DNA of 35,458 nt from Candidatus Competibacteraceae bacterium (lineage in GTDB: Bacteria; Pseudomonadota; Gammaproteobacteria; Competibacterales; Competibacteraceae): contig RXIX01000026.1 in assembly GCA_003989075.1 (NCBI GenBank), positions 1-35,458 of the forward strand, written 5' to 3'. The position numbers and the translations under genes are program-made. Under the pieces are notes generated by a model, which made no database searches, had not been told where the DNA came from, and was given only the letters and a program-made list of their open reading frames with translations. Numbering within the stretch: the stretch's first letter is position 1; every line of letters starts with the position of its first letter. Positions 1 through 28,766 of this stretch are shown piece after piece.

Positions 1-3000
1 AGCGTGGTCACGCTCTCGCCGAGCGCGCAACCCGGCTCCGTCTTTGTCGGCTGGGATGGCGCCTGCAGCGGCACGGCCACCTGCACGGTGACCATGGACA
101 CCGCCAAGAGCGTAACCGCCCGCTTCAACCTGGTGAATGAACTGTCGGTAACCGTCAAATCGGCCACCGGCTCCAGCGGTGGCGTGACCAGCATCCCGGA
201 CGGCATCAACTGCGGTGCGGACTGCGCCGAAGTCTACGCCGCCAATACCACGGTCACCCTGACCGCCGTCGCCGGTACCAACTCCGTGTTCGTCGGCTGG
301 GCGGAAGCCTGCGCCAGCGCCGGCAAGGCCCTGAGCTGCGATGTCACCATCGACGCCGCCAAGAACGTCACCGCCTACTTCGCCCCGGCGCTGTCGGTCA
401 CGGTGATCAAGGGCGGCACCGGCAGTGGCACCGTCACCAGCAGCCCAAGCGGTATCGCCTGCGGCTCCGACTGCTCGGAAAGCTACCTGCTCAACACCAC
501 GGTCACCCTGACCGCTACCGCACAACCCGGCTCCGCCTTCACCGGTTGGAGCGACGCCTGCAGCGGCGCCACCGCCACCTGTCAGGTGCTGGTCGATGCC
601 GCCAAGAGCGTCACCGCCACCTTCACGCTGGATAACACCCTCAGCCTGACGGTCAACAAATCCGGCAGCGGCGCGGCCAACGGCAAGATCGTCAGCAACC
701 CGGCCGGCATCGACTGCGGCAGCGACTGCAGCGGCAGCTACGCCAAGGACAGCACGGTCACCCTGACCGCCACCTCCGGCTCCGACGCCGTATTCACCGG
801 CTGGAGCGGCGCCTGCAGCGGCACCGCATCAAGCTGCACCGTGACCATGAACGAAGCCAGGACGGTGACCGCCTTCTTCAGCATCGCCTACCCGCTCACG
901 GTCAGCAAATCCGGGTCCGGCAGCGGCAGGGTGGTCAGCAGCCCCGAAGGCATCTTCTGCGGCACCGATTGCCAGGAAAGCTATCCCTCCGGCACCAGCG
1001 TCACCCTGACGCCGATCCCTGACAGCGGCTCGGTCTTTGTCTCCTGGAGCGAAGCCTGCAGCGGCACCGGCACCTGCACGGTCAGCATGAGCGAAGCACG
1101 CAGCGTTAACGCCAACTTCGCCCCGCTCAAGACCCTGACCGTCAGCAAGACCGGCACCGGCAGCGACGCCGGCACCGTCACCAGCGCTCCCGCCGGCATC
1201 AACTGCGGCAGCGACTGCTCGGAAGGCTACCCGATCAACACTCCGGTGACCCTGGCCGCCACGCCGGCCGCCAACATGAGCTTCACCGGCTGGGGCGGCG
1301 CCTGCACCGGTACCGCCACCACCTGCACGGTGGTGCTGGATACCGACAGGACCGTATCGGCAAACTTCCAGTCGGTTCAGCACAACCTGACCATCGTCAA
1401 GAACGGGTCGGGTACGGTGACCAGCACCCCGGTCGGCATCGACTGCGGCAGCGACTGCAGCGAGAACTATAACTACGGCACCACGGTCTCGCTCAACGCC
1501 ATCCCTGCGACCGGCTACCAGTTCAGCGGCTGGAGCGGCGCCTGCACCGGCAGCGCCAGTTGCACGGTCACCATGACCGCCGCGCGCAGCGTCACCGCCG
1601 TGTTCGCACCCATCACCTACGCGCTGACCACCAGCAGGGCTGGCACCGGCAGCGGTACCGTGACCAGCGACACCGGCGGCATCAACTGCGGCGCCACCTG
1701 TCAGGTCAACTTCGTCGCCGGCACCGTGGTCACCCTGACCGCTACCCCGGCGAGCGGCTCGGCCTTCTCGGGCTGGAGCGGCGCCTGCACCGGCACCGGC
1801 ACCTGCGCAGTGACCATGGATGCCGCCAAGTCGGTCACCGCCACCTTCGGCTCCACCACGCTTCCGGATCTGGTGCTGACCTCGCTGGTCAGTCCGGGAC
1901 CGGGCACGAACGGCCAGCGTAACGTCAACTTCCGGCTCACCGTGGCCAACCAGGGCGCGGCAGCGGCTGGCAGCTTCAAGGTGGGGCTGTATTTCACCAT
2001 CGACAGCACGGTAGACCCGGCCACGGATGTCAATTCCGGCACGGAATGCAATGTCAGCAGTCTGGCGGTGAATGCTACCTATGTCTGCGAAGGCAATATC
2101 GTGCTGCCGGCAAGCCTGCCGTCCGGAGTCTATCTGCTCGGTGCCTACGCCGATCCGCAAAACCAGATTGCCGAACTGAGCAAGGCCAACAACAGCCGCG
2201 TGACCACCAATACCTTCACCATTTACCGGCTGAATGTCGTAGTGGACGCTGCTGGCAACGGCACGGTGTACAGCCAGCCCAGCGGCATCAATTGCAGCAT
2301 CAGCAGCAACTGCGAGATACCGTTCCTGTCCGGCGACACGGTCACCCTGACCCAGGCGGCCAAGACTGGCTACAGCTTTGCCAACTGGAGCGGCGCCTGC
2401 ACCGGCACCGCCAGCACCTGCACGGTGACCATGAATGCCAATAAGAACGTGGTTGCCCGCTACACCTTCCTGCCCAACTACACCCTGACGGTAAGCAAGG
2501 CCGGCACCGGTGCGGGTACGGTCGCCAGTAATCCTGCCGGTATCAGTTGCGGCACGGATTGCAGCGAGTCCTATACCAGCGGTGCTTCGGTCACCCTGAC
2601 CGCCAGCGCCGCCAGCGGCTCGACCTTCACCGGCTGGAGTGGCGCCTGCAGTGGCACGGACACCTGCACCGTGAGCATGGATGCCGCCAAAGCGGTTACC
2701 GCCACCTTCACCCTGCCCGGTTACACCTTGACCGTGAACAAGGCCGGTACCGGTTCGGGTACGGTCACCAGTGATCCCGCCGGCATCAGTTGCAGCACGG
2801 ATTGCAGCGAGTCCTACACCAGCGGCGCTTCGGTTACCCTCATCGCCACCACGGCCAGCGGCTCGACCTTCACCGGTTGGAGTGGCGCCTGCAGCGGTAC
2901 CAGTACCTGCACGGTGAGCATGGATGCCGCCAAGAGCGTGACCGCCAATTTCATGCTCAGCAGCTATGCATTGACAGTAGCTAAAGCGGGTACCGGTAGT

Positions 3001-4062
3001 GGCACGGTCACCAGTGATCCCGCCGGCATCAGTTGCAGCACGGATTGCAGCGAGTCCTACACCAGCGGCGCTTCGGTTACCCTCACCGCCAGGGCCGCCA
3101 GCGGCTCGACCTTCGCCGGCTGGAGCGGCGCCTGCAGCGGTACCAGTACCTGCACGGTGAGCATGGATGCCGCCAAAGCGGTCACCGCGACCTTCAACCT
3201 GCCCCGCTACACCCTGACGGTCAGAACGGCCGGCACCGGTTCGGGTACGGTCACCAGTGATCCCGCCGGTATCAGTTGCGGCACGGATTGCAGCGAGTCC
3301 TATACCAGCGGCACTGCGGTCACCCTGACCGCCAGCGCCGCCAGCGGCTCGACCTTCGCTGGCTGGAGTGGCGCCTGCAGCGGTACCAGCACCTGCAAGG
3401 TGAGCATGAGCGCGGCCAAGACAGTCACCGCGACCTTCCTGCCCCGCTACACCTTGACGGTGAGCAAGGCCGGCACCGGTTCGGGTACGGTCGCTAGTAA
3501 TCCCGCCGGCATCAGTTGCGGCACGGATTGCAGCGAGTCCTATACCAGCAGCACTGCGGTCACCCTCACCGCCAGGGCTGCCAGCGGCTCGACCTTCGCC
3601 GGCTGGAGTGGGGCATGTACCGGTACCGCCAGCACCTGCAAGGTGAGCATGGATGCCGCCAAAGAGGTCACCGCGACCTTCACCCCACCCCGCTACACCT
3701 TGACCGTGAGAAAGGCCGGCACCGGTTCAGGTACGGTCACCAGCGATCCTGCCGGCATCAGTTGCAGCACGGATTGCAGCGAGCCTTACACCAGCGGCGC
3801 TTCGGTTACCCTCACCGCCACCACGGCCAGCGGCTCGACCTTCGCCGGCTGGAGTGGCGTCTGCAGTGGTACCAGTACCTGCACGGTGACCATGAGCGCG
3901 GCCAAAACAGTCACCGCCACCTTCAACCGCTCCATGAGCAGCAGCTATCCGACGGAAGCGGCCCTGCTCACCACTCTCGTCCCCGGTGCCTACACCGCCA
4001 TCGTGCGTGGTGCCGGCGTCACGACCGGCAATGCCCTGGTCGAGGTGTTCGATCAGGATTGA
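1..4062 (+). CDS. Large cysteine-rich InlB-B-like repeat protein with CARDB-like domain (5' partial)
   Basis: The reading frame is open at the left edge, so the true start and any signal peptide lie outside the window. About 1,350 residues are visible. They form one partial and 14 complete repeats of about 80 residues. Each repeat has an LTV..G.G.GTV strand pattern, a CGxDC motif, a TVTLTA strand, a GWSGAC motif, a second Cys near CTV, and ends in VTATF. This resembles the divergent InlB B-repeat (Flg_new) family of bacterial surface proteins. Repeats 8 and 9 are separated by a CARDB-like beta domain at about 1861-2230. The C-terminus is a short tail containing PGAYTAIVRGAG and ending in EVFDQD. 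Most repeats carry four cysteines, which suggests disulfides and hence a periplasmic or external location. Adhesion or surface binding is a guess; no catalytic motif is visible. A terminator follows 22 bases after the stop. Confidence 0.85.
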   Translation, partial: SVVTLSPSAQPGSVFVGWDGACSGTATCTVTMDTAKSVTARFNLVNELSVTVKSATGSSGGVTSIPDGINCGADCAEVYAANTTVTLTAVAGTNSVFVGWAEACASAGKALSCDVTIDAAKNVTAYFAPALSVTVIKGGTGSGTVTSSPSGIACGSDCSESYLLNTTVTLTATAQPGSAFTGWSDACSGATATCQVLVDAAKSVTATFTLDNTLSLTVNKSGSGAANGKIVSNPAGIDCGSDCSGSYAKDSTVTLTATSGSDAVFTGWSGACSGTASSCTVTMNEARTVTAFFSIAYPLTVSKSGSGSGRVVSSPEGIFCGTDCQESYPSGTSVTLTPIPDSGSVFVSWSEACSGTGTCTVSMSEARSVNANFAPLKTLTVSKTGTGSDAGTVTSAPAGINCGSDCSEGYPINTPVTLAATPAANMSFTGWGGACTGTATTCTVVLDTDRTVSANFQSVQHNLTIVKNGSGTVTSTPVGIDCGSDCSENYNYGTTVSLNAIPATGYQFSGWSGACTGSASCTVTMTAARSVTAVFAPITYALTTSRAGTGSGTVTSDTGGINCGATCQVNFVAGTVVTLTATPASGSAFSGWSGACTGTGTCAVTMDAAKSVTATFGSTTLPDLVLTSLVSPGPGTNGQRNVNFRLTVANQGAAAAGSFKVGLYFTIDSTVDPATDVNSGTECNVSSLAVNATYVCEGNIVLPASLPSGVYLLGAYADPQNQIAELSKANNSRVTTNTFTIYRLNVVVDAAGNGTVYSQPSGINCSISSNCEIPFLSGDTVTLTQAAKTGYSFANWSGACTGTASTCTVTMNANKNVVARYTFLPNYTLTVSKAGTGAGTVASNPAGISCGTDCSESYTSGASVTLTASAASGSTFTGWSGACSGTDTCTVSMDAAKAVTATFTLPGYTLTVNKAGTGSGTVTSDPAGISCSTDCSESYTSGASVTLIATTASGSTFTGWSGACSGTSTCTVSMDAAKSVTANFMLSSYALTVAKAGTGSGTVTSDPAGISCSTDCSESYTSGASVTLTARAASGSTFAGWSGACSGTSTCTVSMDAAKAVTATFNLPRYTLTVRTAGTGSGTVTSDPAGISCGTDCSESYTSGTAVTLTASAASGSTFAGWSGACSGTSTCKVSMSAAKTVTATFLPRYTLTVSKAGTGSGTVASNPAGISCGTDCSESYTSSTAVTLTARAASGSTFAGWSGACTGTASTCKVSMDAAKEVTATFTPPRYTLTVRKAGTGSGTVTSDPAGISCSTDCSEPYTSGASVTLTATTASGSTFAGWSGVCSGTSTCTVTMSAAKTVTATFNRSMSSSYPTEAALLTTLVPGAYTAIVRGAGVTTGNALVEVFDQD
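1861..2230 (+). other. CARDB-like domain inside the repeat protein
   Basis: Between repeat units 8 and 9 the protein changes to about 120 residues without the repeat signature. It reads LPDLVLTSL, then a VNFRLTVANQGAA strand, GLYFTIDSTVDPATD, a Cys pair near ECNVSS and YVCEG, and finally GVYLLGAYADPQNQIAE-SKANN. This is the pattern of CARDB (cell adhesion related domain in bacteria), an Ig-like beta-sandwich. It may act as a spacer or binding module. The assignment rests on pattern recognition only. Confidence 0.7.
2479..3930 (+). repeat. Six tandem, nearly identical coding repeats (240-246 bp units)
   Basis: Six successive units start at about 2479, 2722, 2965, 3208, 3448 and 3694. Their lengths are 243, 243, 243, 240, 246 and about 237 bases. 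They are much more alike at DNA level than the upstream units, sharing long identical stretches around the AGISCGTDCSESYTSG and ASGSTFAGWSGAC coding segments. All length differences are multiples of three, so the frame is kept. This pattern fits recent tandem duplication or gene conversion within the large repeat gene. Confidence 0.9.
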
Positions 4063-17327: not shown

Positions 17328-18842
17328 ATGACCACCATCCGTCAAGAAGACTTCATCCAGAGCATCGCCGACGCCTTTCAGTACATCAGCTATTACCACC
17401 CAGTCGATTACATCAAGGCGCTGGCCGCAGCCTATGAACGCGAGGCAAGCCCAGCGGCCAAGGATGCCATCGCGCAGATCCTGATCAACTCGCGGATGTG
17501 CGCCGAGGGCCACCGGCCCATCTGCCAGGACACCGGCATTGCCCTGGTGTTCCTCAAGGTCGGCATGGACGTGCACTGGGATGCGACGCTGTCGGTGCAG
17601 GAGATGGTCGACGAAGGCGTGCGCCGCGCCTATCTCAACCCGGAGAACAAGCTGCGCGCCTCGGTGCTGCGCGACCCGGCCGGCAAGCGCCAGAACAGCA
17701 AGGACAATACCCCGGCGGTGGTGCATTACGAAATTGTCCCCGGTCACCATGTCGAGGTGATCTGCGCGGCCAAGGGCGGTGGTTCGGAAGCCAAGTCCAA
17801 GTTCGCCATGCTCAACCCGTCCGATAATCTGGTTGAATGGGTGCTTAAGACCGTGCCGACCATGGGCGCGGGCTGGTGCCCGCCGGGCATTCTCGGCATT
17901 GGCATTGGCGGCACGCCGGAAAAGGCCTTCATGCTGGCCAAGGAATCGCTGATGGCCCCGGTTGATATTCAGGAACTGATCGCCCGTGGCCCGGCCAATC
18001 GCGCTGAGGAATTGCGCATCGAGCTGTATGAAAAGGTCAACGCTCTGGGTATCGGCGCGCAGGGTCTGGGTGGTTTGACCACGGTGCTGGATGTCAAGGT
18101 GCTCGATTATCCGACCCATGCCGCTAATCTGCCGATCGCAATGGTGCCCAACTGCGCCGCCACCCGTCACGCCCATTTCCATCTCGACGGCAGCGGTCCG
18201 GCCAAGCTGGAGCCGCCGAGCCTGGAGGATTGGCCGCAGTTGACCTATGCGCCGACCAATGCCCGTCGCGTCGATCTGGCCACCGTCACCCGCGAGGACG
18301 TAGCGACCTGGAAGACCGGCGAGGTGCTGCTGCTCAACGGCAAGATGCTCACCGGTCGCGATGCTGCCCACAAGCGCATGACCGACATGCTCAGCGCCGG
18401 GCAGAAACTGCCGGTCGATTTCACCAACCGCTTCATCTACTACGTCGGTCCGGTTGATCCGGTGCGTGATGAAGTCGTCGGCCCCGCCGGTCCGACTACG
18501 GCCACGCGCATGGACAAGTTCACCCGGCAGATGCTGGAACAGACCGGCCTGCTGGGCATGATCGGCAAATCCGAACGCGGCGATCTGGCGATCAGTGCGA
18601 TCAAGGACAACAAGGCGGTTTATCTGATGGCGGTCGGCGGCGCCGCCTATCTGGTGTCCAAGGCGATCAAGTCAGCGCGGGTGCTGGCCTTTGAAGATCT
18701 GGGCATGGAAGCGATCTACGAGTTCGAGGTCAAGGACATGCCGGTGACGGTGGCGGTCGATTCGCAGGGCTCCAGCGTCCACAAGACCGGGCCGAAGGAA
18801 TGGCAGGTCAAGATCGGCAAGATTCCGGTGGTTGAAGCCTGA
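17328..18842 (+). CDS. Class I fumarate hydratase (iron-sulfur type)
   Basis: This enzyme interconverts fumarate and malate in the TCA cycle with an oxygen-sensitive 4Fe-4S cluster. The 504-residue single chain is the length of the homodimeric class I fumarases (FumA/FumB type). Visible marks are CQDTG with Cys66, a likely cluster ligand; GGGSEAKSKFAMLNPS; VPNCAATRHAHFHLDGSG with a second conserved Cys; and the C-terminal region beginning YYVGPVDPVRDEVVGPAGPT. The start is well supported by AGGAG 6 bases upstream. It is divergent from maeB and followed, after 114 bases with a large palindrome, by the CorA-like gene. A class I tartrate dehydratase relationship exists at family level, but fumarase is far more likely here. 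Confidence 0.95.
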   Translation: MTTIRQEDFIQSIADAFQYISYYHPVDYIKALAAAYEREASPAAKDAIAQILINSRMCAEGHRPICQDTGIALVFLKVGMDVHWDATLSVQEMVDEGVRRAYLNPENKLRASVLRDPAGKRQNSKDNTPAVVHYEIVPGHHVEVICAAKGGGSEAKSKFAMLNPSDNLVEWVLKTVPTMGAGWCPPGILGIGIGGTPEKAFMLAKESLMAPVDIQELIARGPANRAEELRIELYEKVNALGIGAQGLGGLTTVLDVKVLDYPTHAANLPIAMVPNCAATRHAHFHLDGSGPAKLEPPSLEDWPQLTYAPTNARRVDLATVTREDVATWKTGEVLLLNGKMLTGRDAAHKRMTDMLSAGQKLPVDFTNRFIYYVGPVDPVRDEVVGPAGPTTATRMDKFTRQMLEQTGLLGMIGKSERGDLAISAIKDNKAVYLMAVGGAAYLVSKAIKSARVLAFEDLGMEAIYEFEVKDMPVTVAVDSQGSSVHKTGPKEWQVKIGKIPVVEA

Positions 18843-18869
18843 GAGCCGTTTGGGATTCGGTCGTTCGGC

Positions 18870-18917
18870 CCTCGCCCCTGCTTCTTCTCCCAGTCGGGAC
18901 AGGGGGTGGAGGCGAGG
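18870..18917. repeat. Large imperfect palindrome after the fumarase gene
   Basis: CCTCGCC (18870-18876) pairs with GGCGAGG (18911-18917), and CCCTG with CAGGG lies further in. There is no T-run, so a simple intrinsic terminator is not supported. It is loosely similar to the palindromes at 9777 and 25458. Confidence 0.5.
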
Positions 18918-18956
18918 TAATACGTCTTTACACGTCTTGCGGCAGGGACTGAAGCA

Positions 18957-20621
18957 ATGAGCGATACCGACAACAACAGCGCTGCTCATGTCCGCCATTT
19001 CCGGCAAATCCTGCTCTGGCCATTGCAGTTGATGCCGTTCCAGACTTCACAGATTCAGAAGCACTGGGAACTGCTGCAACTGGCTCCGGACAATCCCTGG
19101 GCTGAAGTGGACGACGAGTTTCCCAGCGATCCGGCTGAATTCAAGGAGCGGCATTACGCCGAATTCATCACCTTTCTGCCCTATGTGCAGCGTTTTCTCT
19201 ATGGCGAGGGCAGTGGGCGTGGTGCCGGCGACGATGCCGGCTATGGCGAATCGCCGATCAAGGTGTTCCGCCGCACCGATGTCGCCCGGGCGCGGGTGAC
19301 CTTTGAGGCGGGCGAAACACCGGTGCTATTTGAAATCGCCCATATCGACCTGTATTTCTTTCTCGATCTGGATATCGCCATCCTGGTGGTGGAAATCCAT
19401 ACCCATGATCTGTCGCTGCACCGGGCCCAGGATGCGCTGGCCCGTTTTGGCCGCGCCTATCCGCCGAACTGGAGCGCTGCCGGTCAGGGCGGGCACTGTC
19501 TGAGCAAGATCGAATGGCTCGATCACGCCGGTACGGTGCTGGCAGCCTCGGATTACGAGAATCGCGAAAAATTCCTGCGCTTTGCCTGCGAGCACCGCAC
19601 CCCGCGCATGGCCGCGCACTGGGAATACCTGCTGCGGCCGATGGTGCTGCACTACTCCGATCGTAATGGCGCGCTGCGCTATCGGCAGATCGAATACCAC
19701 CGCATGCCGCTGATGGGCTATCTGGCGCTGGATGATCCGCGCCGGTTGACCCGTGGTGATTATGTGCGCCTGGGGCTGGTGGCCGGGCCGGGCGCCTCGG
19801 GCTCATTGCCGTATTCAGAACGTTATCTGCAGGATTTCGAAACCCGCTATTGCTATGACCGCTATCGCGAGGATCGCGAGGGCCACGACTGGATTGACAC
19901 CCGCACCATGTGCTGCGGCCACGCGTTCGTCATTGTCGGCAATCATAAGGATCACTTCTTCACCGATGCTGAAAATGGTTTGCTCAGCCATTTTCGCCAC
20001 CAGTATTTTCTGCTGTTCCTGATCGCGCATATGCACAAGGTGGCGTTGCTGATGCTATCCGATCGCCTGGTGGTGGCGCTCAGCCGGCTGGAAATCCACG
20101 ACGTGGAATCGGTCAAGCGCTTCAAGCGCGAAATTCGCCACACTATGGAAATCTTCCTGCGCTTTACCCACCGCTACTGGTTTCACGAACTGTCCAACCA
20201 GATGCAGTTGCGCGATCTGTACCAGATGTGCGTGCGCCATCTGGATACGCCGCGCCTGTATAACGAGGTGCGCCAGTCCGTCTATGACATGCATGGCTAT
20301 CTGGAAAGCGATGGCATTCGCCGTCAAGCCAATACTGTGGTGCGGCTGACCGTGGTGACCACTTTTGGCATGATCGGCACGATCACGACCGGTATTCTGG
20401 GCATGAACGTATTTGATGAAGCCGGCGAGCCGAGCTGGTATCGCCTGCTGCTGTTCATGCTGGTATTCGTGCCGACCACCGTGCTGACCTTGTACACCAT
20501 CGAGCAATCCAAGTCGCTGGCTGATTTCCTCGAAGCTCTGGCTAATGAGCGCTGGGGAATCGGGCGCAAATTCAAGGTGCTGTTCAGATCATGGTGGCGG
20601 CGGCCGAATCAACCGTCCTGA
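18957..20621 (+). CDS. CorA-like inner-membrane protein with long N-terminal region
   Basis: The 554-residue protein ends in two likely transmembrane helices (about 460-481 and 494-515). They are joined by GILGMNVF, in which residues 482-484 are the GMN signature of CorA-family Mg2+/divalent-cation channels. A positively charged tail of about 39 residues follows, ending WWRRPNQPS. The remaining 455 or so residues are mostly soluble and longer than in E. coli CorA (316 residues in all). They include a DLYFFLDLDIAILVVEIHTHD segment interrupted by no obvious motif. This suggests a divergent CorA subgroup; the ion carried cannot be told. Start ATG 18957 has a weak upstream GGGA. The crotonase gene follows after 31 bases on the same strand, so co-transcription is possible though their functions look unrelated. 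Confidence 0.75.
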   Translation: MSDTDNNSAAHVRHFRQILLWPLQLMPFQTSQIQKHWELLQLAPDNPWAEVDDEFPSDPAEFKERHYAEFITFLPYVQRFLYGEGSGRGAGDDAGYGESPIKVFRRTDVARARVTFEAGETPVLFEIAHIDLYFFLDLDIAILVVEIHTHDLSLHRAQDALARFGRAYPPNWSAAGQGGHCLSKIEWLDHAGTVLAASDYENREKFLRFACEHRTPRMAAHWEYLLRPMVLHYSDRNGALRYRQIEYHRMPLMGYLALDDPRRLTRGDYVRLGLVAGPGASGSLPYSERYLQDFETRYCYDRYREDREGHDWIDTRTMCCGHAFVIVGNHKDHFFTDAENGLLSHFRHQYFLLFLIAHMHKVALLMLSDRLVVALSRLEIHDVESVKRFKREIRHTMEIFLRFTHRYWFHELSNQMQLRDLYQMCVRHLDTPRLYNEVRQSVYDMHGYLESDGIRRQANTVVRLTVVTTFGMIGTITTGILGMNVFDEAGEPSWYRLLLFMLVFVPTTVLTLYTIEQSKSLADFLEALANERWGIGRKFKVLFRSWWRRPNQPS

Positions 20622-20652
20622 TGCTGGACTTGCCGCCTTCTGGAGCGCTGCG

Positions 20653-21468
20653 ATGCTGGATTTTAGCTGCCTGACTGTGAACCTGAGCGATCAGGTTGCC
20701 TGGATTGAACTCAACCGCCCCGACAAGGCCAATGCGCTCAACGGTCCGTTGTGGCGGGAAATCGGCGCGGCCTTTCGCTGGGTGGACGATACCCCCGAGG
20801 TACGGGTGGCGGTGCTGAGTGGCGCGGGCCGGCATTTTTGCGCGGGCATCGATTTTGAACTGATGGGCGAAGTGCTGGATGCGGTTGAAACCCGTGGTCC
20901 AGGGCGCAAGGAAGAGCAGTTGCGCCGCGCCATTCTGGATCTGCAGGCTTCCTTCACTGCGCTGGAGCAGTGCCGCAAGCCGGTGCTGGCCGCCGTGCAG
21001 GGCCTGTGCATTGGCGGCGGGCTGGACCTGATTGCCGCCTGCGATATGCGCTATGCCAGTGCCGAGGCTGCGTTTTCGCTCAAGGAAGCGGATCTGGCGA
21101 TCATCGCCGATGTGGGCAGTCTGCAGCGCCTGCCGCAGGTGATCGGTGCGGGCCGGGTGCGTGAACTGGCCTTTACCGCCCGTCAGTTCGATGCGGCCGA
21201 GGCGCAGGCGATGGGGTTGGTGAACCGGGTGTATGCCGACGCCGCACAACTGCGTGATGCAGTACGGGCGATCGCGCTCAGCATTGCCGCAAAATCACCG
21301 CTGACCGTGCGCGGCATCAAGCAGGTGCTCAATTACAGCCGCGATCACAGCGTTGCCGATGGCCTGGATTATGTGGCGACCTGGAATGCCGCCATGCTGC
21401 TGTCCGATGATACCCGCGAGGCAATCACGGCAGCGATGCAGAAGCGGCAACCGCGCTTTCAGGATTAA
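20653..21468 (+). CDS. Crotonase-family protein, delta(3,5)-delta(2,4)-dienoyl-CoA isomerase-like
   Basis: The 271-residue protein has the crotonase fold with an oxyanion loop (HFCAGIDFELM and GLCIGGGLDLIAACDMRY). Three acidic residues, Asp125, Glu145 and Asp153, match the spacing of the catalytic Asp/Glu/Asp of the mammalian peroxisomal/mitochondrial enzyme ECH1, which shifts double bonds during breakdown of unsaturated fatty acids. IADVGSLQRLPQVIG and YSRDHSVADGLDYVATWN are also close to ECH1. A plain enoyl-CoA hydratase role is less likely. I chose ATG 20653, with GGAG 7 bases upstream (20642-20645). An in-frame extension to 20545 would run into the CorA-like gene. No other fatty-acid oxidation gene is nearby. 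Confidence 0.87.
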   Translation: MLDFSCLTVNLSDQVAWIELNRPDKANALNGPLWREIGAAFRWVDDTPEVRVAVLSGAGRHFCAGIDFELMGEVLDAVETRGPGRKEEQLRRAILDLQASFTALEQCRKPVLAAVQGLCIGGGLDLIAACDMRYASAEAAFSLKEADLAIIADVGSLQRLPQVIGAGRVRELAFTARQFDAAEAQAMGLVNRVYADAAQLRDAVRAIALSIAAKSPLTVRGIKQVLNYSRDHSVADGLDYVATWNAAMLLSDDTREAITAAMQKRQPRFQD

Positions 21469-25498: not shown

Positions 25499-26797
25499 AT
25501 GAATATCCTGATCGTTGGCGGCGGTGGTCGCGAACATGCCCTGGCCTGGAAGGTGGCGCAGTCCAGCCGGGTCAGTAATGTTTACGTCGCACCGGGCAAT
25601 GCGGGTACCGCCCTGGAACCCAAGGTGACCAATATCGCGATCACTGCCGATGATCCGCCGGACCTGCTCCGGTTTGCCCAGGCGCATCATGTCGATCTGA
25701 CCATCATCGGCCCGGAAGTGCCGCTGGTCCTGGGCATCAGCGATCTGTTCGCGGCGGCGGGCCTGGCCTGCTTTGGACCCCGGCAGGCGGCAGCGCAGCT
25801 GGAAGGTTCCAAGGCCTTTGCCAAGGATTTCCTGGCCCGGCACGCCATTCCTACGGCCCGCTACCAGAGCTTCACCGATGCCGATGCTGCTGAAGCCTTC
25901 ATCCGCGAGATGGGCGCACCGCTGGTGGTTAAGGCCGATGGGCTGGCGGCGGGCAAGGGCGTGGTGCTGGCGCAGAGCATCGAGGAGGCCATCGCTGCCG
26001 CCCGGAGCATGCTCAGCGGTTCGGCGTTTGGTGCTGCCGGTCAACGCGTGGTAGTCGAGGAATTCCTGGTCGGCGAGGAGGCCAGCTTCATCGTCATGAC
26101 CGATGGCGAGTTCATTCTGCCGCTGGCCTCGTCACAGGATCACAAGGCCCGCGACAATGGCGATCAGGGACCGAACACGGGTGGCATGGGTGCCTATTCG
26201 CCGGCGCCGGTGGTGACCCCGGAGCTGCATGAGCGGATCATGGCGGAGATCATTGCCCCGACCGTGCGCGGCATGGCCGCCGAGGGTTGCCGCTATGTCG
26301 GCTTTCTCTACGCCGGGGTGATGGTGACCGCCGAGGGACCGAAGGTGCTGGAGTACAACTGTCGGCTCGGCGATCCCGAGGCCCAGCCGCTGCTGATGCG
26401 CCTGCGCTCGGATCTGGTCGAGCTGTGCAAGGCAGCGCTGGAGGGGCAGTTGGCCACGGTCGAAGCCGAGTGGGATCCGCGCCCGGCGCTGGGCGTGGTG
26501 ATGACGGCCGGTGGCTATCCGGGCCGCTATCGGCAGGGCGATGTCATCGAGGGCCTGCCGGCGCATGATGAGGATCTGGATGATGACCTCAAGATCTTCC
26601 ACGCCGGCACCCAGGAGGCCAAGGACGGCAACGTCGTGACCCATGGTGGTCGGGTGTTGTGCGTCACGGCCCTGGGGGGCAGCGTCGCCGAGGCGCAAAG
26701 CCAGGCCTATAACCTGGTCAAGCAGTTGCGCTGGGAAGGCGCCTACTATCGTACCGATATCGGCTATCGCGCCATCGCCCGCGAGCGGGGTGAATAG
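25499..26797 (+). CDS. purD: Phosphoribosylamine-glycine ligase (GAR synthetase)
   Basis: PurD joins glycine to phosphoribosylamine with ATP, the second step of purine synthesis. The 432-residue protein shows the family start MNILIVGGGGREHALAWK, an ATP-grasp core (VVKADGLAAGKGVVLA, VVVEEFLVGEEASF), QDHKARDNGDQGPNTGGMGAYSP-type loop residues, and YNCRLGDPEAQP. I chose ATG 25499; a TTG at 25484 is also in frame but adds only five residues, and GAGGGG sits just upstream of the ATG. It is likely co-transcribed with purH. ubiU begins one base after the purD stop, so ubiU may be translationally coupled. Confidence 0.97.
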   Translation: MNILIVGGGGREHALAWKVAQSSRVSNVYVAPGNAGTALEPKVTNIAITADDPPDLLRFAQAHHVDLTIIGPEVPLVLGISDLFAAAGLACFGPRQAAAQLEGSKAFAKDFLARHAIPTARYQSFTDADAAEAFIREMGAPLVVKADGLAAGKGVVLAQSIEEAIAAARSMLSGSAFGAAGQRVVVEEFLVGEEASFIVMTDGEFILPLASSQDHKARDNGDQGPNTGGMGAYSPAPVVTPELHERIMAEIIAPTVRGMAAEGCRYVGFLYAGVMVTAEGPKVLEYNCRLGDPEAQPLLMRLRSDLVELCKAALEGQLATVEAEWDPRPALGVVMTAGGYPGRYRQGDVIEGLPAHDEDLDDDLKIFHAGTQEAKDGNVVTHGGRVLCVTALGGSVAEAQSQAYNLVKQLRWEGAYYRTDIGYRAIARERGE

Positions 26798-26798
26798 C

Positions 26799-27830
26799 AT
26801 GGCCAGTCCGGCTCCTACCGCCAAGGCATCCACCTTGGAACTGGTCTGTCCCGCGGGCAACCTGCCGTCGCTGAAAACGGCCGTCGATCACGGCGCCGAT
26901 GCGGTGTACATCGGCTTTCGCGACGACACCAACGCCCGGCATTTTCCCGGCCTGAACTTCGACGCCAAGGCCGCCGAGCAGGGCGTGCGCTATGCCCAGA
27001 CCCGTGGCCGGCGGGTCTTCGTCGCCCTTAACACCTTTCCGCAGCCGGACGGCTGGGCGCGCTGGCAGCGGGCGGTTGATCAGGCCGCCGAATTGGGTGT
27101 GGATGCGGTGATCGCCGCCGACATCAGCGTGCTCGACTACGCCTGCCAGCGGCATCCGCAACTGCCGCTGCACCTGTCGGTACAGGGTTCGGCCACCAAC
27201 TACGAAGCGATCCGCTTTTACCATGAGCGCTTTGGCATCCGTCGGGTGGTCCTGCCACGGGTACTGTCGCTGCCGCAGGTACGCCATGTGTTGGATAGCA
27301 GCCCGGTCGGCATCGAAGTCTTTGGTTTTGGCGGTCTGTGCATCATGGTCGAGGGGCGCTGCCTGCTGTCTTCCTACGTCACCGGCGAATCGCCCAATAT
27401 GTGCGGGGTCTGCTCGCCGGCCAAGGCGGTGCGCTGGGAGGAAACCCCGCGTGGCCTGGAAACGCGGCTCGGTGGCCTGCTCATCGATCGTTATGAGCCC
27501 GACGAGCCGGCCGGCTATCCGACCCTGTGCAAGGGCCGCTTCATGGTTGGCGACCAGACCTATTACGCCATCGAGGAACCGACCAGCCTCAATACCCTGG
27601 AGCTGCTGCCGGAGTTGCAGGCCATGGGTATTGCCGCAATCAAGATCGAGGGTCGCCAGCGCAGTCCGGCCTATGTCACCCAGGTGACCCGGGTCTGGCG
27701 GGCGGCGATTGATGCCTGCCGGCGTAATCCGGCCGGCTATGCGCCAAAACCGGAATGGCTGCGCGAACTGGGCAAGGTGTCCGAGGGGCATCAGACCACG
27801 CTTGGCGCCTATCACCGTACCTGGCAGTGA
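26799..27830 (+). CDS. ubiU: Oxygen-independent ubiquinone hydroxylation protein UbiU (U32 family)
   Basis: UbiU works with UbiV to hydroxylate ubiquinone precursors without O2. The 343-residue protein belongs to the U32 peptidase-like family (LELVCPAGNLPSLKTAVDHG, AVYIGFRDDTNAR). The four likely 4Fe-4S ligands are Cys181, Cys188, Cys205 and Cys244. Their spacing of 7, 17 and 39 residues matches E. coli UbiU (169, 176, 193, 232). ATG 26799 begins one base after the purD stop; a longer frame starting inside purD is spurious. ubiV follows after 12 bases with its own GGAG, so the two are an operon. Presence of this pair indicates quinone synthesis under anaerobic conditions. Confidence 0.95.
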   Translation: MASPAPTAKASTLELVCPAGNLPSLKTAVDHGADAVYIGFRDDTNARHFPGLNFDAKAAEQGVRYAQTRGRRVFVALNTFPQPDGWARWQRAVDQAAELGVDAVIAADISVLDYACQRHPQLPLHLSVQGSATNYEAIRFYHERFGIRRVVLPRVLSLPQVRHVLDSSPVGIEVFGFGGLCIMVEGRCLLSSYVTGESPNMCGVCSPAKAVRWEETPRGLETRLGGLLIDRYEPDEPAGYPTLCKGRFMVGDQTYYAIEEPTSLNTLELLPELQAMGIAAIKIEGRQRSPAYVTQVTRVWRAAIDACRRNPAGYAPKPEWLRELGKVSEGHQTTLGAYHRTWQ

Positions 27831-27842
27831 GGAGCAATCGCC

Positions 27843-28766
27843 ATGGCAACCGTTGAACAAGGCCTGCCGCGCCTGGCGCTCGGTCCGGTGCTGTATTACT
27901 GGCCGCGGCAGATGCTGCTCGATTTTTACGAGCGGATGAGCGCGGCGCCGCTGGACATCGTGTATATCGGCGAAACCGTATGCTCCAAGCGCCATGCCCT
28001 GAATACCACCGACTGGCTGGACCTGGCGGAACGCATCAGCGCGACCGGTAAGGAGGTGGTGCTGTCGACGCTGGCGCTGCTGGAAGCGGAATCGGAACTG
28101 AAGACGCTGCGCCGGCTGTGCGCGAATGGCCGCTTTACCGTTGAAGCGAATGATATGGGCGCGGTGCATCTGCTGGCGGCGCAGGGCGTGCCGTTCGTGC
28201 TCGGCACCGGGATCAATGTCTATAACGAGCGCACCCTGGGTGTTCTGGCCAGGCTGGGCGCGCAGCGCTGGGTGATGCCGGTGGAATTGTCGCGGGAGAC
28301 GCTGGCGGCGATTCAGGCCCGACGGCCGGCCGGTGTCGAGACCGAGGTGTTCGCCTATGGCCGCCTGCCGCTGGCCTATTCGGCGCGCTGTTTCACGGCC
28401 CGCTACCATGACCTGCCCAAGGATGATTGCCAGTATCGCTGTCTGGACGATCCCGAGGGCCTGACCCTGAGCACCCGCGAGAGCCAGATCTTCCTGACGC
28501 TGAACGGGATTCAGACCCAGTCAGCACAGACCTGCAACCTGCTGGCGGAATTGGCCGATTTGCGCGCGCTGGGTGTGGACGTGCTGCGCCTCAGTCCGCA
28601 GCCGCACGACATGGAGACGGTGATCGAGGCGTTTGCCGCCTGTCGGAGCGGTGCGCGTGATCCACGCGAAGCGGCGCAGGCCTTGAATGCCGGCCTGCCA
28701 CACGGTGCCTGCGATGGCTACTGGCAGGGCCAGCCGGGTCTAAGGCAGGTCGCGGCAGCGGTGTAG
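27843..28766 (+). CDS. ubiV: Oxygen-independent ubiquinone hydroxylation protein UbiV (U32 family)
   Basis: UbiV is the partner of UbiU in O2-independent ubiquinone synthesis; known UbiU-UbiV complexes carry one 4Fe-4S cluster in each chain. The 307-residue protein has IVYIGETVCSKR and ends its Fe-S motif with ARCFTARYHDLPKDDC-QYRC. The likely ligands are Cys47, Cys183, Cys196 and Cys200, with the last three spaced as in E. coli UbiV (180, 193, 197). ATG 27843 has GGAG at 27831-27834, 8 bases upstream and directly after the ubiU stop. A strong hairpin terminator follows the gene and is shared with the convergent ubiT. Confidence 0.95.
   Translation: MATVEQGLPRLALGPVLYYWPRQMLLDFYERMSAAPLDIVYIGETVCSKRHALNTTDWLDLAERISATGKEVVLSTLALLEAESELKTLRRLCANGRFTVEANDMGAVHLLAAQGVPFVLGTGINVYNERTLGVLARLGAQRWVMPVELSRETLAAIQARRPAGVETEVFAYGRLPLAYSARCFTARYHDLPKDDCQYRCLDDPEGLTLSTRESQIFLTLNGIQTQSAQTCNLLAELADLRALGVDVLRLSPQPHDMETVIEAFAACRSGARDPREAAQALNAGLPHGACDGYWQGQPGLRQVAAAV

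What the first reader, a model, noticed from the sequence alone, without database searches (positions are those of the whole stretch)
18957..20621. CorA-like protein with a 450-residue soluble region
GMN plus two C-terminal helices indicate the CorA superfamily, but the N-terminal region is far longer than in classical CorA and I recognise no domain in it. It may sense or transport a different ion, or use another gating ligand.
Basis: partly seen in the sequence, partly recalled or inferred. Interest (0 to 1): 0.5.

Follow-up and report, generated by a model that had tools for sequence, protein, structure and literature searches.

The report
Chromosomal cousin of CRISPR CorA channel
This bacterial gene appears to make a membrane channel whose large sensor part is shared with a channel that some CRISPR immune systems are thought to open with a chemical signal, but this version sits among ordinary chromosomal genes, also in bacteria without such an immune system, so its own signal is unknown.

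Summary
The ORF is real (554 aa, window 18957-20621 +). GMN and two C-terminal helices are there; only the stalk-pore part resembles classical CorA. The long N-terminal region is not an orphan: residues 12-489 align over 437 columns with CorA proteins of type III CRISPR loci (hhalign E 4.7e-52; N-domain alone 8.4e-24), the family whose Bacteroides fragilis member binds SAM-AMP. The N-domain does not align with four classical-type CorAs (E 0.25) and has no clear solved fold. The window protein belongs to a conserved chromosomal clade. Of 62 genomes with such a copy, 36 show no type III RAMP gene; in 25 of the other 26, full-length copies and RAMPs lie on different contigs. Divergent relatives sit beside cas10/RAMP genes. 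GMN is kept in 71 of 72 clade rows, against 2 of 7 CRISPR rows, and part of the site that Chi et al. mutated is changed. Most likely it is a CRISPR-independent, ligand-gated divalent-cation channel whose ligand is probably not SAM-AMP. Homology is firm; ligand gating and ion are inferred. Against this: in a phylum sample, carriers have type III systems more often than non-carriers.

The parts
18957..20621 (+). chromosomal CRISPR-CorA-type channel protein, 554 aa, ATG start, stop included
   Evidence: PADLOC CorA models PDLC01043 (2e-63, residues 9-501) and PDLC01174 (7.3e-39, residues 45-505)
18978..19991 (+). N-terminal sensor domain, residues about 8-345, homologous to the cytoplasmic domain of type III CRISPR CorA proteins
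   Evidence: hhalign A4 vs A5 E 8.4e-24; vs classical-type CorA E 0.25; AF2 alone pLDDT 85.7, pTM 0.86
19452..19463 (+). motif R166-A-Y-P169, counterpart of the CRISPR RR(I)YP motif; R166 kept in 71 of 72 A1 rows and aligned with Arg in six of six CRISPR rows
19692..19709 (+). motif E246-Y-H-R-M-P251, counterpart of the CRISPR DDRMF motif; R249 kept in 68 of 72 A1 rows, positions 247 and 248 not acidic in any of 72
20163..20207 (+). family signature, residues 403-417 (FTHRYWFHELSNQMQ); F403 and F409 in six of six CRISPR rows, T404 and Y407 in four of six; the two Gln are also present in the CRISPR rows
20247..20504 (+). stalk helix plus TM1 (431-487) and TM2 (493-516)
   Evidence: AF2 secondary structure; Pfam CorA 384-513
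20400..20408 (+). GMN motif, residues 482-484
17328..18842 (+). upstream gene: class I (Fe-S) fumarate hydratase; 114 nt before the corA-like gene
   Evidence: found near the gene in kin
20653..21468 (+). downstream gene: crotonase/enoyl-CoA hydratase, probable ATG 31 nt after the corA-like stop (the mechanical ORF starts at 20545)

Best explanation
The protein is a chromosomal, CRISPR-independent member of the family so far described as the CorA effector of type III CRISPR systems. Shown: residues 12-489 are homologous to those proteins, sensor domain included; only the stalk and pore are detectably homologous to classical CorA; it belongs to a conserved clade found in many genomes where no type III RAMP gene was detected. 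Inferred: it is a pentamer in which the ~345-residue cytoplasmic domain binds a small intracellular ligand (probably nucleotide-like) and moves the stalk helix to open a GMN pore. The pore remains selective for divalent cations, so the role is regulated Mg2+ or other divalent flux rather than membrane-wrecking immunity. The ligand is probably not SAM-AMP itself, since part of the site needed in B. fragilis CorA is replaced while neighbouring Arg residues are kept.
For: PADLOC CorA models match 9-501; the genome's three other CorAs match them only in the pore part at 11-22 bits. hhalign against six CRISPR-type CorAs E 4.7e-52 over 437 columns, N-domain alone 8.4e-24; against four classical-type CorAs E 0.25. 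Of 62 genomes with a window-type copy, 36 have no RAMP match; in 25 others full-length copies and RAMPs are on different contigs. Tree: 65 window-type rows in one group (SH-aLRT 94), III-D-like L101 next to it (99). GMN in 71 of 72 clade rows against 2 of 7 CRISPR rows; R166 71/72, R249 68/72, residue 248 acidic in 0/72. B. fragilis CorA binds SAM-AMP, and R152/R153 and D219/D220 variants lose immunity, though the authors could not exclude a change of quaternary structure (PMC10600005, passages).
Against: No ligand, ion or oligomer was measured. Carriers have type III RAMPs more often than non-carriers in a phylum sample: 9 of 15 against 26 of 383, 4 of 8 genera against 18 of 205; the nine lie in three families. 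Within the window's own family there is no association (15 of 26 against 5 of 11). Many genomes are fragmented or incomplete, so absence of RAMPs or of linkage is not certain in each. The B. fragilis sequence was not in hand, so matching its RR and DD to the motifs seen here is inferred, and one realignment lets E246 stand for the first Asp and R166 for the first Arg. No widely conserved neighbour points to a ligand.
Confidence: 0.6

Rival explanations
1. It is a CorA-type Mg2+ channel gated by Mg2+ itself; the large N-domain is a structural or lineage-specific replacement with no small-molecule ligand.
For: GMN kept in 71 of 72 rows; PF01544 above cut-off; no ligand shown; lone chromosomal gene without widely conserved neighbours.
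Against: The N-domain has no detectable similarity to four classical-type CorAs but aligns with domains of a family with a nucleotide-derived ligand, keeping R166 and R249. The genome already has three other CorA genes.
Confidence: 0.2
2. It is a type III CRISPR effector acting in trans: Cas10 encoded elsewhere in the genome produces the messenger that opens it.
For: Own genome has a type III-B locus on another contig; raw co-occurrence 9 of 15 carriers against 26 of 383 non-carriers.
Against: 36 of 62 carrier genomes have no RAMP match, including 20 of the 21 genomes reached through loci. The own III-B locus carries a Csx1-type CARF-HEPN protein and a CARF5-type protein; none of the ten ORFs scanned there was listed as CorA or DHH_CorA, and the own genome's only PDLC01043 match is the window gene. 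The SAM-AMP site seems only partly kept.
Confidence: 0.1
3. It is a stand-alone anti-phage effector with its own messenger-making partner, unlinked to CRISPR.
For: Homology to an immune effector family; five of seven CRISPR rows have lost or changed GMN, so the family can serve immunity.
Against: No family that I recognise as defence among the 25 shown of 109 Pfam families in 115 neighbouring ORFs; no relative found in viral contigs or phages; fumarase and enoyl-CoA hydratase flank it in kin; short branches compared with the CRISPR rows.
Confidence: 0.1

Closest known systems
Type III CRISPR-associated CorA effector (B. fragilis CorA; PADLOC PDLC01043/PDLC01174 'CorA-like')
   Same: Homology from residue 12 to 489: sensor domain, stalk and pore; shared R166, Y168, P169 region, R249, F403 and F409.
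   Different: Not linked to cas genes; not fused to a DHH (NrN-type) domain as in the Arcobacter and Haliscomenobacter proteins; GMN kept in 71 of 72; the residue before R249 is not acidic.
Classical CorA / ZntB / Mrs2 (Pfam PF01544)
   Same: Stalk-pore region, GMN, two C-terminal TM helices; structural matches to CorA/MRS2 rest mainly on about residues 345-520.
   Different: N-terminal ~345 residues not alignable by profile; the N-domain model alone has no PDB match at Foldseek E<=1e-3 and no VIA-align Z>=5.
CRISPR-linked CorA L101 (genome G213, beside a Cas10-like gene and RAMP genes that PADLOC names Csm3, Csm4 and Cas7_IIId)
   Same: Closest CRISPR-linked relative found: 38% identity, 432 bits to the clade profile, next to the clade in the tree.
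   Different: GGN instead of GMN; RR before AYP; D-E before R.

Membership tests
CorA superfamily (PF01544) | C-terminal stalk and two TM helices with GMN | tested here: met
   PF01544 29.5 bits against cut-off 27; GMN 482-484; AF2 helices
CorA superfamily (PF01544) | CorA/ZntB-type N-terminal alpha/beta domain | tested here: not met
   N-domain profile vs four classical-type CorAs: hhalign probability 0.25 (in %), E 0.25
Type III CRISPR-associated CorA family | long N-terminal sensor domain homologous over its length | tested here: met
   E 8.4e-24 over 294 columns; PADLOC 212.7 bits, residues 9-501
Type III CRISPR-associated CorA family | encoded beside type III cas genes | tested here: not met
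   Own genome's Cas10 (palm domain) and RAMP matches are on contig C2, the gene on C26; flanking genes are metabolic
Type III CRISPR-associated CorA family | SAM-AMP degrading partner (NrN/DHH, DEDD or lyase) fused or adjacent | tested here: not met
   Flanking genes are fumarase and enoyl-CoA hydratase; no DHH_CorA match in P0001. A partner elsewhere in the genome was not sought.
Type III CRISPR-associated CorA family | residues needed in B. fragilis CorA (R152/R153, D219/D220) | tested here: inconclusive
   One Arg (R166) kept and the residue before R249 non-acidic in 72/72, but motif assignment is inferred without the B. fragilis sequence; E246 may stand for one Asp
Type III CRISPR-associated CorA family | binds SAM-AMP | not testable with these tools
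   needs a binding assay
ligand-gated divalent cation channel | ligand-dependent opening and divalent selectivity | not testable with these tools
   GMN conservation is suggestive only

The most novel reading that the evidence does not exclude
Bacteria carry a housekeeping Mg2+ (or other divalent) channel opened by a nucleotide-type second messenger, from which the type III CRISPR CorA effectors were recruited (or with which they share a common origin); SAM-AMP-like signalling would then exist outside immunity, with an unknown synthase.
Probability: 0.3. Interest if true: 0.8.

Novelty: new variant of a known kind. Interest (0 to 1): 0.55.

Why it matters
[quoted passage not shown] A conserved chromosomal relative, probably less toxic (inference), gives another protein for structure and ligand fishing, and raises the question of a messenger-gated divalent channel outside immunity. 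It also warns annotators: PADLOC CorA models score such chromosomal genes at 153-212 bits (15 genomes), so a bare hit is not proof of a CRISPR effector.

Tried and rejected
Pfam and NCBIfam gave only the CorA stalk-pore part. phmmer/hmmsearch against PDB gave weak CorA hits in the same part, best E 0.0014. Foldseek with the full model ranked CorA first but with TM 0.17; VIA-align rows near Z 8 rest mainly on the helical part and are mixed with unrelated helical proteins such as spectrin, Z 10.9. The N-domain alone: Foldseek best E 0.025 (Pct1 RNA triphosphatase, TM 0.12), VIA best Z 4.5; read as no clear match, not as a new fold. A search for a conserved neighbourhood failed: the largest ORF clusters are the gene itself and ORFs overlapping it (judged by the coordinates of the representatives), and the largest cluster away from it covers 11 of 80 loci; clusters in 8 loci (polyphosphate kinase by eye) and 6 loci (CYTH by eye; annotated) look lineage-bound. 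A Pfam scan of 115 neighbouring ORFs (of 142 picked at 49 of 71 loci; the rest, among them the longest, were left out) matched fumarase and enoyl-CoA hydratase in four members each and every other family shown in one or two (25 of 109 families shown). Promoter and terminator scans found no more than shuffles. Viral contigs and phages gave no relative. ORF lists are mechanical and may hold antisense ORFs.

Literature searches that did not show a description of CRISPR-independent members of this family: (listings with starts of abstracts; passages of PMC10600005, PMC11229360, PMC12255297, PMC12669027). This is weak evidence, since most subscription papers and all bioRxiv preprints are missing from the library, and no whole paper was read. 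PMC6022700 was a wrong guess and is unrelated.

Rows left out: of the 80 loci, nine are not in A1: four with a stop in the stretch as extended (L021, L026, L055, L070), one with an X (L010) and four Nitrospira near-copies (L063, L065, L067, L083). A4 holds 62 of the 71 loci plus the window. The tree holds 52 of the 72 A1 rows, 13 other chromosomal rows and seven CRISPR-type rows; its CRISPR rows have long branches (1.9-8.1), the tool warns of long-branch joins, and the root is unknown, so the direction of recruitment is not shown. The CRISPR-type proteins L104/L148 (partial) and L130 are not in the residue counts or the tree. The separate pieces in G030 and G034, the 52-residue match in G002 and the fragment in G021 were not counted as full-length copies in the RAMP linkage count (G030 and G034 were not given; they do count as carriers in the within-family test).

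Full report
What is there. Window 18957-20621 (+) encodes 554 residues. Pfam sees CorA only in residues 384-513; all 72 members of alignment A1 hit the same Pfam family, and the other matches shown are weak (best E 0.0069, at most 11 members). GMN lies at 482-484. The AF2 model (72 sequences; pLDDT 83.9, pTM 0.80) has a mixed alpha/beta region up to about residue 336, three helices, a long helix 431-487 that contains the GMN, and a helix 493-516.

What the N-terminal region is. PADLOC models named CorA-like match residues 9-501 (PDLC01043, 212.7 bits) and 45-505 (PDLC01174, 131.9 bits). The genome's three other CorA genes match these models only in the pore part at 11-22 bits. That the models come from type III CRISPR loci is recalled, but type III loci hold such proteins: on an Arcobacter plasmid the annotated CorA gene lies beside cas10, cmr4-6, cas1 and cas2, on a Haliscomenobacter plasmid beside cas10 and cmr3-6, on a Tistrella plasmid beside RAMP genes, cas1 and cas2. 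The first two are fusions of a DHH domain (PADLOC DHH_CorA) with the CorA part, 302-436 bits to the two CorA models. hhalign of A1 against six CRISPR-type CorAs gives probability 100, E 4.7e-52, 437 columns, residues 12-489. The N-domain alone (residues 8-345, 63 sequences) gives E 8.4e-24 over 294 columns. Against four classical-type CorAs (three of this genome, one of another) the full alignment matches only residues 419-520 (E 6.4e-7) and the N-domain not at all (E 0.25).

Known biology of the relatives. B. fragilis CorA binds SAM-AMP made by the Cmr complex; R152A/R153A and D219A/D220A variants lose immunity, though a change of quaternary structure was not excluded; the phosphodiesterase NrN is needed too; the channel mechanism is proposed, not shown (PMC10600005, passages). 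CorA was found in 53 type III loci, and an Actinomyces clade may use cA6 (PMC11229360, passages). Whether III-D CorAs sense SAM-AMP is open (PMC12669027, passages).

The window gene is not encoded with CRISPR genes. A scan of bacterial and archaeal genomes found 418 encoding stretches; the 80 kept (51-78% identity) carry titles of Beta-, Gamma- and Alphaproteobacteria and Nitrospira, plus one Gemmatimonadaceae. Among 59 related genomes 27 have a match, one of them a 52-residue piece. In an evenly drawn sample of 398 Pseudomonadota genomes 59 have a PDLC01043 match, but only 15 match over the sensor domain (153 bits or more). I searched 71 genomes for type III RAMPs: 62 with a window-type copy, six with a divergent relative, three without either. 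Of the 62, 36 have no RAMP match. Of the 21 genomes reached through loci (21 of 80 chosen, mostly named isolates), 20 have none. In 25 of the 26 carriers with RAMPs, no full-length copy lies on a RAMP contig; one of them (G021) also has an 80-residue fragment about 80 kb from RAMPs. For the 26th, the Azospirillum soli copy, contig numbers could not be matched, but the coordinates are at least 19 kb apart. Assemblies are fragmented, so longer-range linkage cannot be excluded. By contrast, five divergent relatives (G213, G159, G339, G303, G262) lie within 10 kb of RAMPs, each with a Cas10-like protein in the locus; the sixth and weakest (G650, 47 bits) lies on a contig without RAMP matches. Of ten ORFs scanned in the five loci, one (L146) is a DHH_CorA protein.

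Result against this reading. In the 398-genome sample, 9 of 15 carriers have RAMPs against 26 of 383 non-carriers (Fisher p 4e-7, not corrected for kinship); by genus 4 of 8 against 18 of 205 (p 0.005). The nine fall into three families. Within the window's own family, 15 of 26 carriers and 5 of 11 non-carriers have a Cas10 match of 36 bits or more (p 0.72). I cannot exclude that some lineages use it with a type III system in trans.

Evolution and residues. In a 72-row tree the 65 chromosomal rows form one group (SH-aLRT 94), and L101, linked to III-D-like genes, is next to it (99); the CRISPR rows have end branches of 1.9-8.1 against a median of 0.2, and the tool warns about such branches. 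GMN: G 72/72, M 72/72, N 71/72 in A1; of seven CRISPR rows only Arcobacter and L102 have GMN, Haliscomenobacter has GIN, L101 GGN, and L103, L105 and Tistrella have none there. The only RR in the Arcobacter and Haliscomenobacter CorA parts is in GRRIYP and the DD that aligns between them is in DDRMF, so I take these as B. fragilis R152/R153 and D219/D220 (inference). In A1 the first motif reads G165 (68/72)-R166 (71/72)-A-Y168-P169 and the second E246 (72/72)-Y247-x248-R249 (68/72)-M-P251; positions 247 and 248 are acidic in none of 72. A second alignment aligns Arg with R166 and R249 in six of six CRISPR rows but lets E246 pair with an Asp in four. So the site is partly kept and partly rebuilt.

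Mechanism. Shared homology, a kept Arg core and a kept GMN pore suggest a pentameric channel whose sensor domain binds an intracellular ligand and opens a divalent-selective pore. Strong conservation argues for physiology rather than suicide. In the window the gene lies between fumarase (114 nt upstream) and an enoyl-CoA hydratase (probable ATG 31 nt downstream) on the same strand. Of 108 non-window loci searched (many cut short; a genome may be held twice), 11 show the fumarase and 10 the hydratase, four of them both; elsewhere the neighbourhood varies. The ligand is unknown.

Verdict. Membership by descent is firm; membership of the CRISPR system fails on linkage and partner; gating and ion are inferred. 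New variant of a known kind.

Noticed in passing
G000:C2:19380-37622 (L108, L110): Own genome has a mixed CRISPR locus: Cas4b, Cas1b, Cas3b, Cas7b, Cas8b (I-B) next to Cmr6, Cas10, a CARF-HEPN Csx1 and a CARF5-type protein (III-B); none of the ten ORFs scanned was listed as CorA or DHH_CorA.
   Followed up: partly
window 1-4062 +: Open-ended ORF with 13 Flg_new_2 (InlB B-repeat type) stretches and a CARDB domain: possibly a surface protein cut by the window edge.
   Followed up: no
L060:2665-4893; L153:8485-8961: A polyphosphate-kinase-like gene (by eye) directly upstream in Nitrospira and an annotated CYTH-domain gene near an Azospirillum copy; among 115 neighbours one matched PPK2 and one PP_kinase_C_1. 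A link to polyphosphate or triphosphate metabolism is possible but unproven.
   Followed up: partly
window 17328-21468: Fumarase - corA-like - enoyl-CoA hydratase is also seen in related loci such as L005, L024, L087 and L094; the fumarase is 92-96% identical there while the corA-like protein is 58-78%.
   Followed up: partly
G030:C45:5762-7237; G034:C319:3291-4927: Copies of the corA-like gene that appear as three and two separate pieces, possibly frameshifted or misassembled.
   Followed up: no
window 26643-28766 +: UbiU (NCBIfam, above cut-off) followed by a second U32 peptidase-family gene, plausibly UbiV: anaerobic ubiquinone synthesis pair.
   Followed up: no
L152:6835-10182: Tistrella mobilis protein of 1115 aa beside CRISPR genes whose C-terminal part matches PADLOC CorA models (residues 723-993) but which has no GMN.
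   Followed up: no
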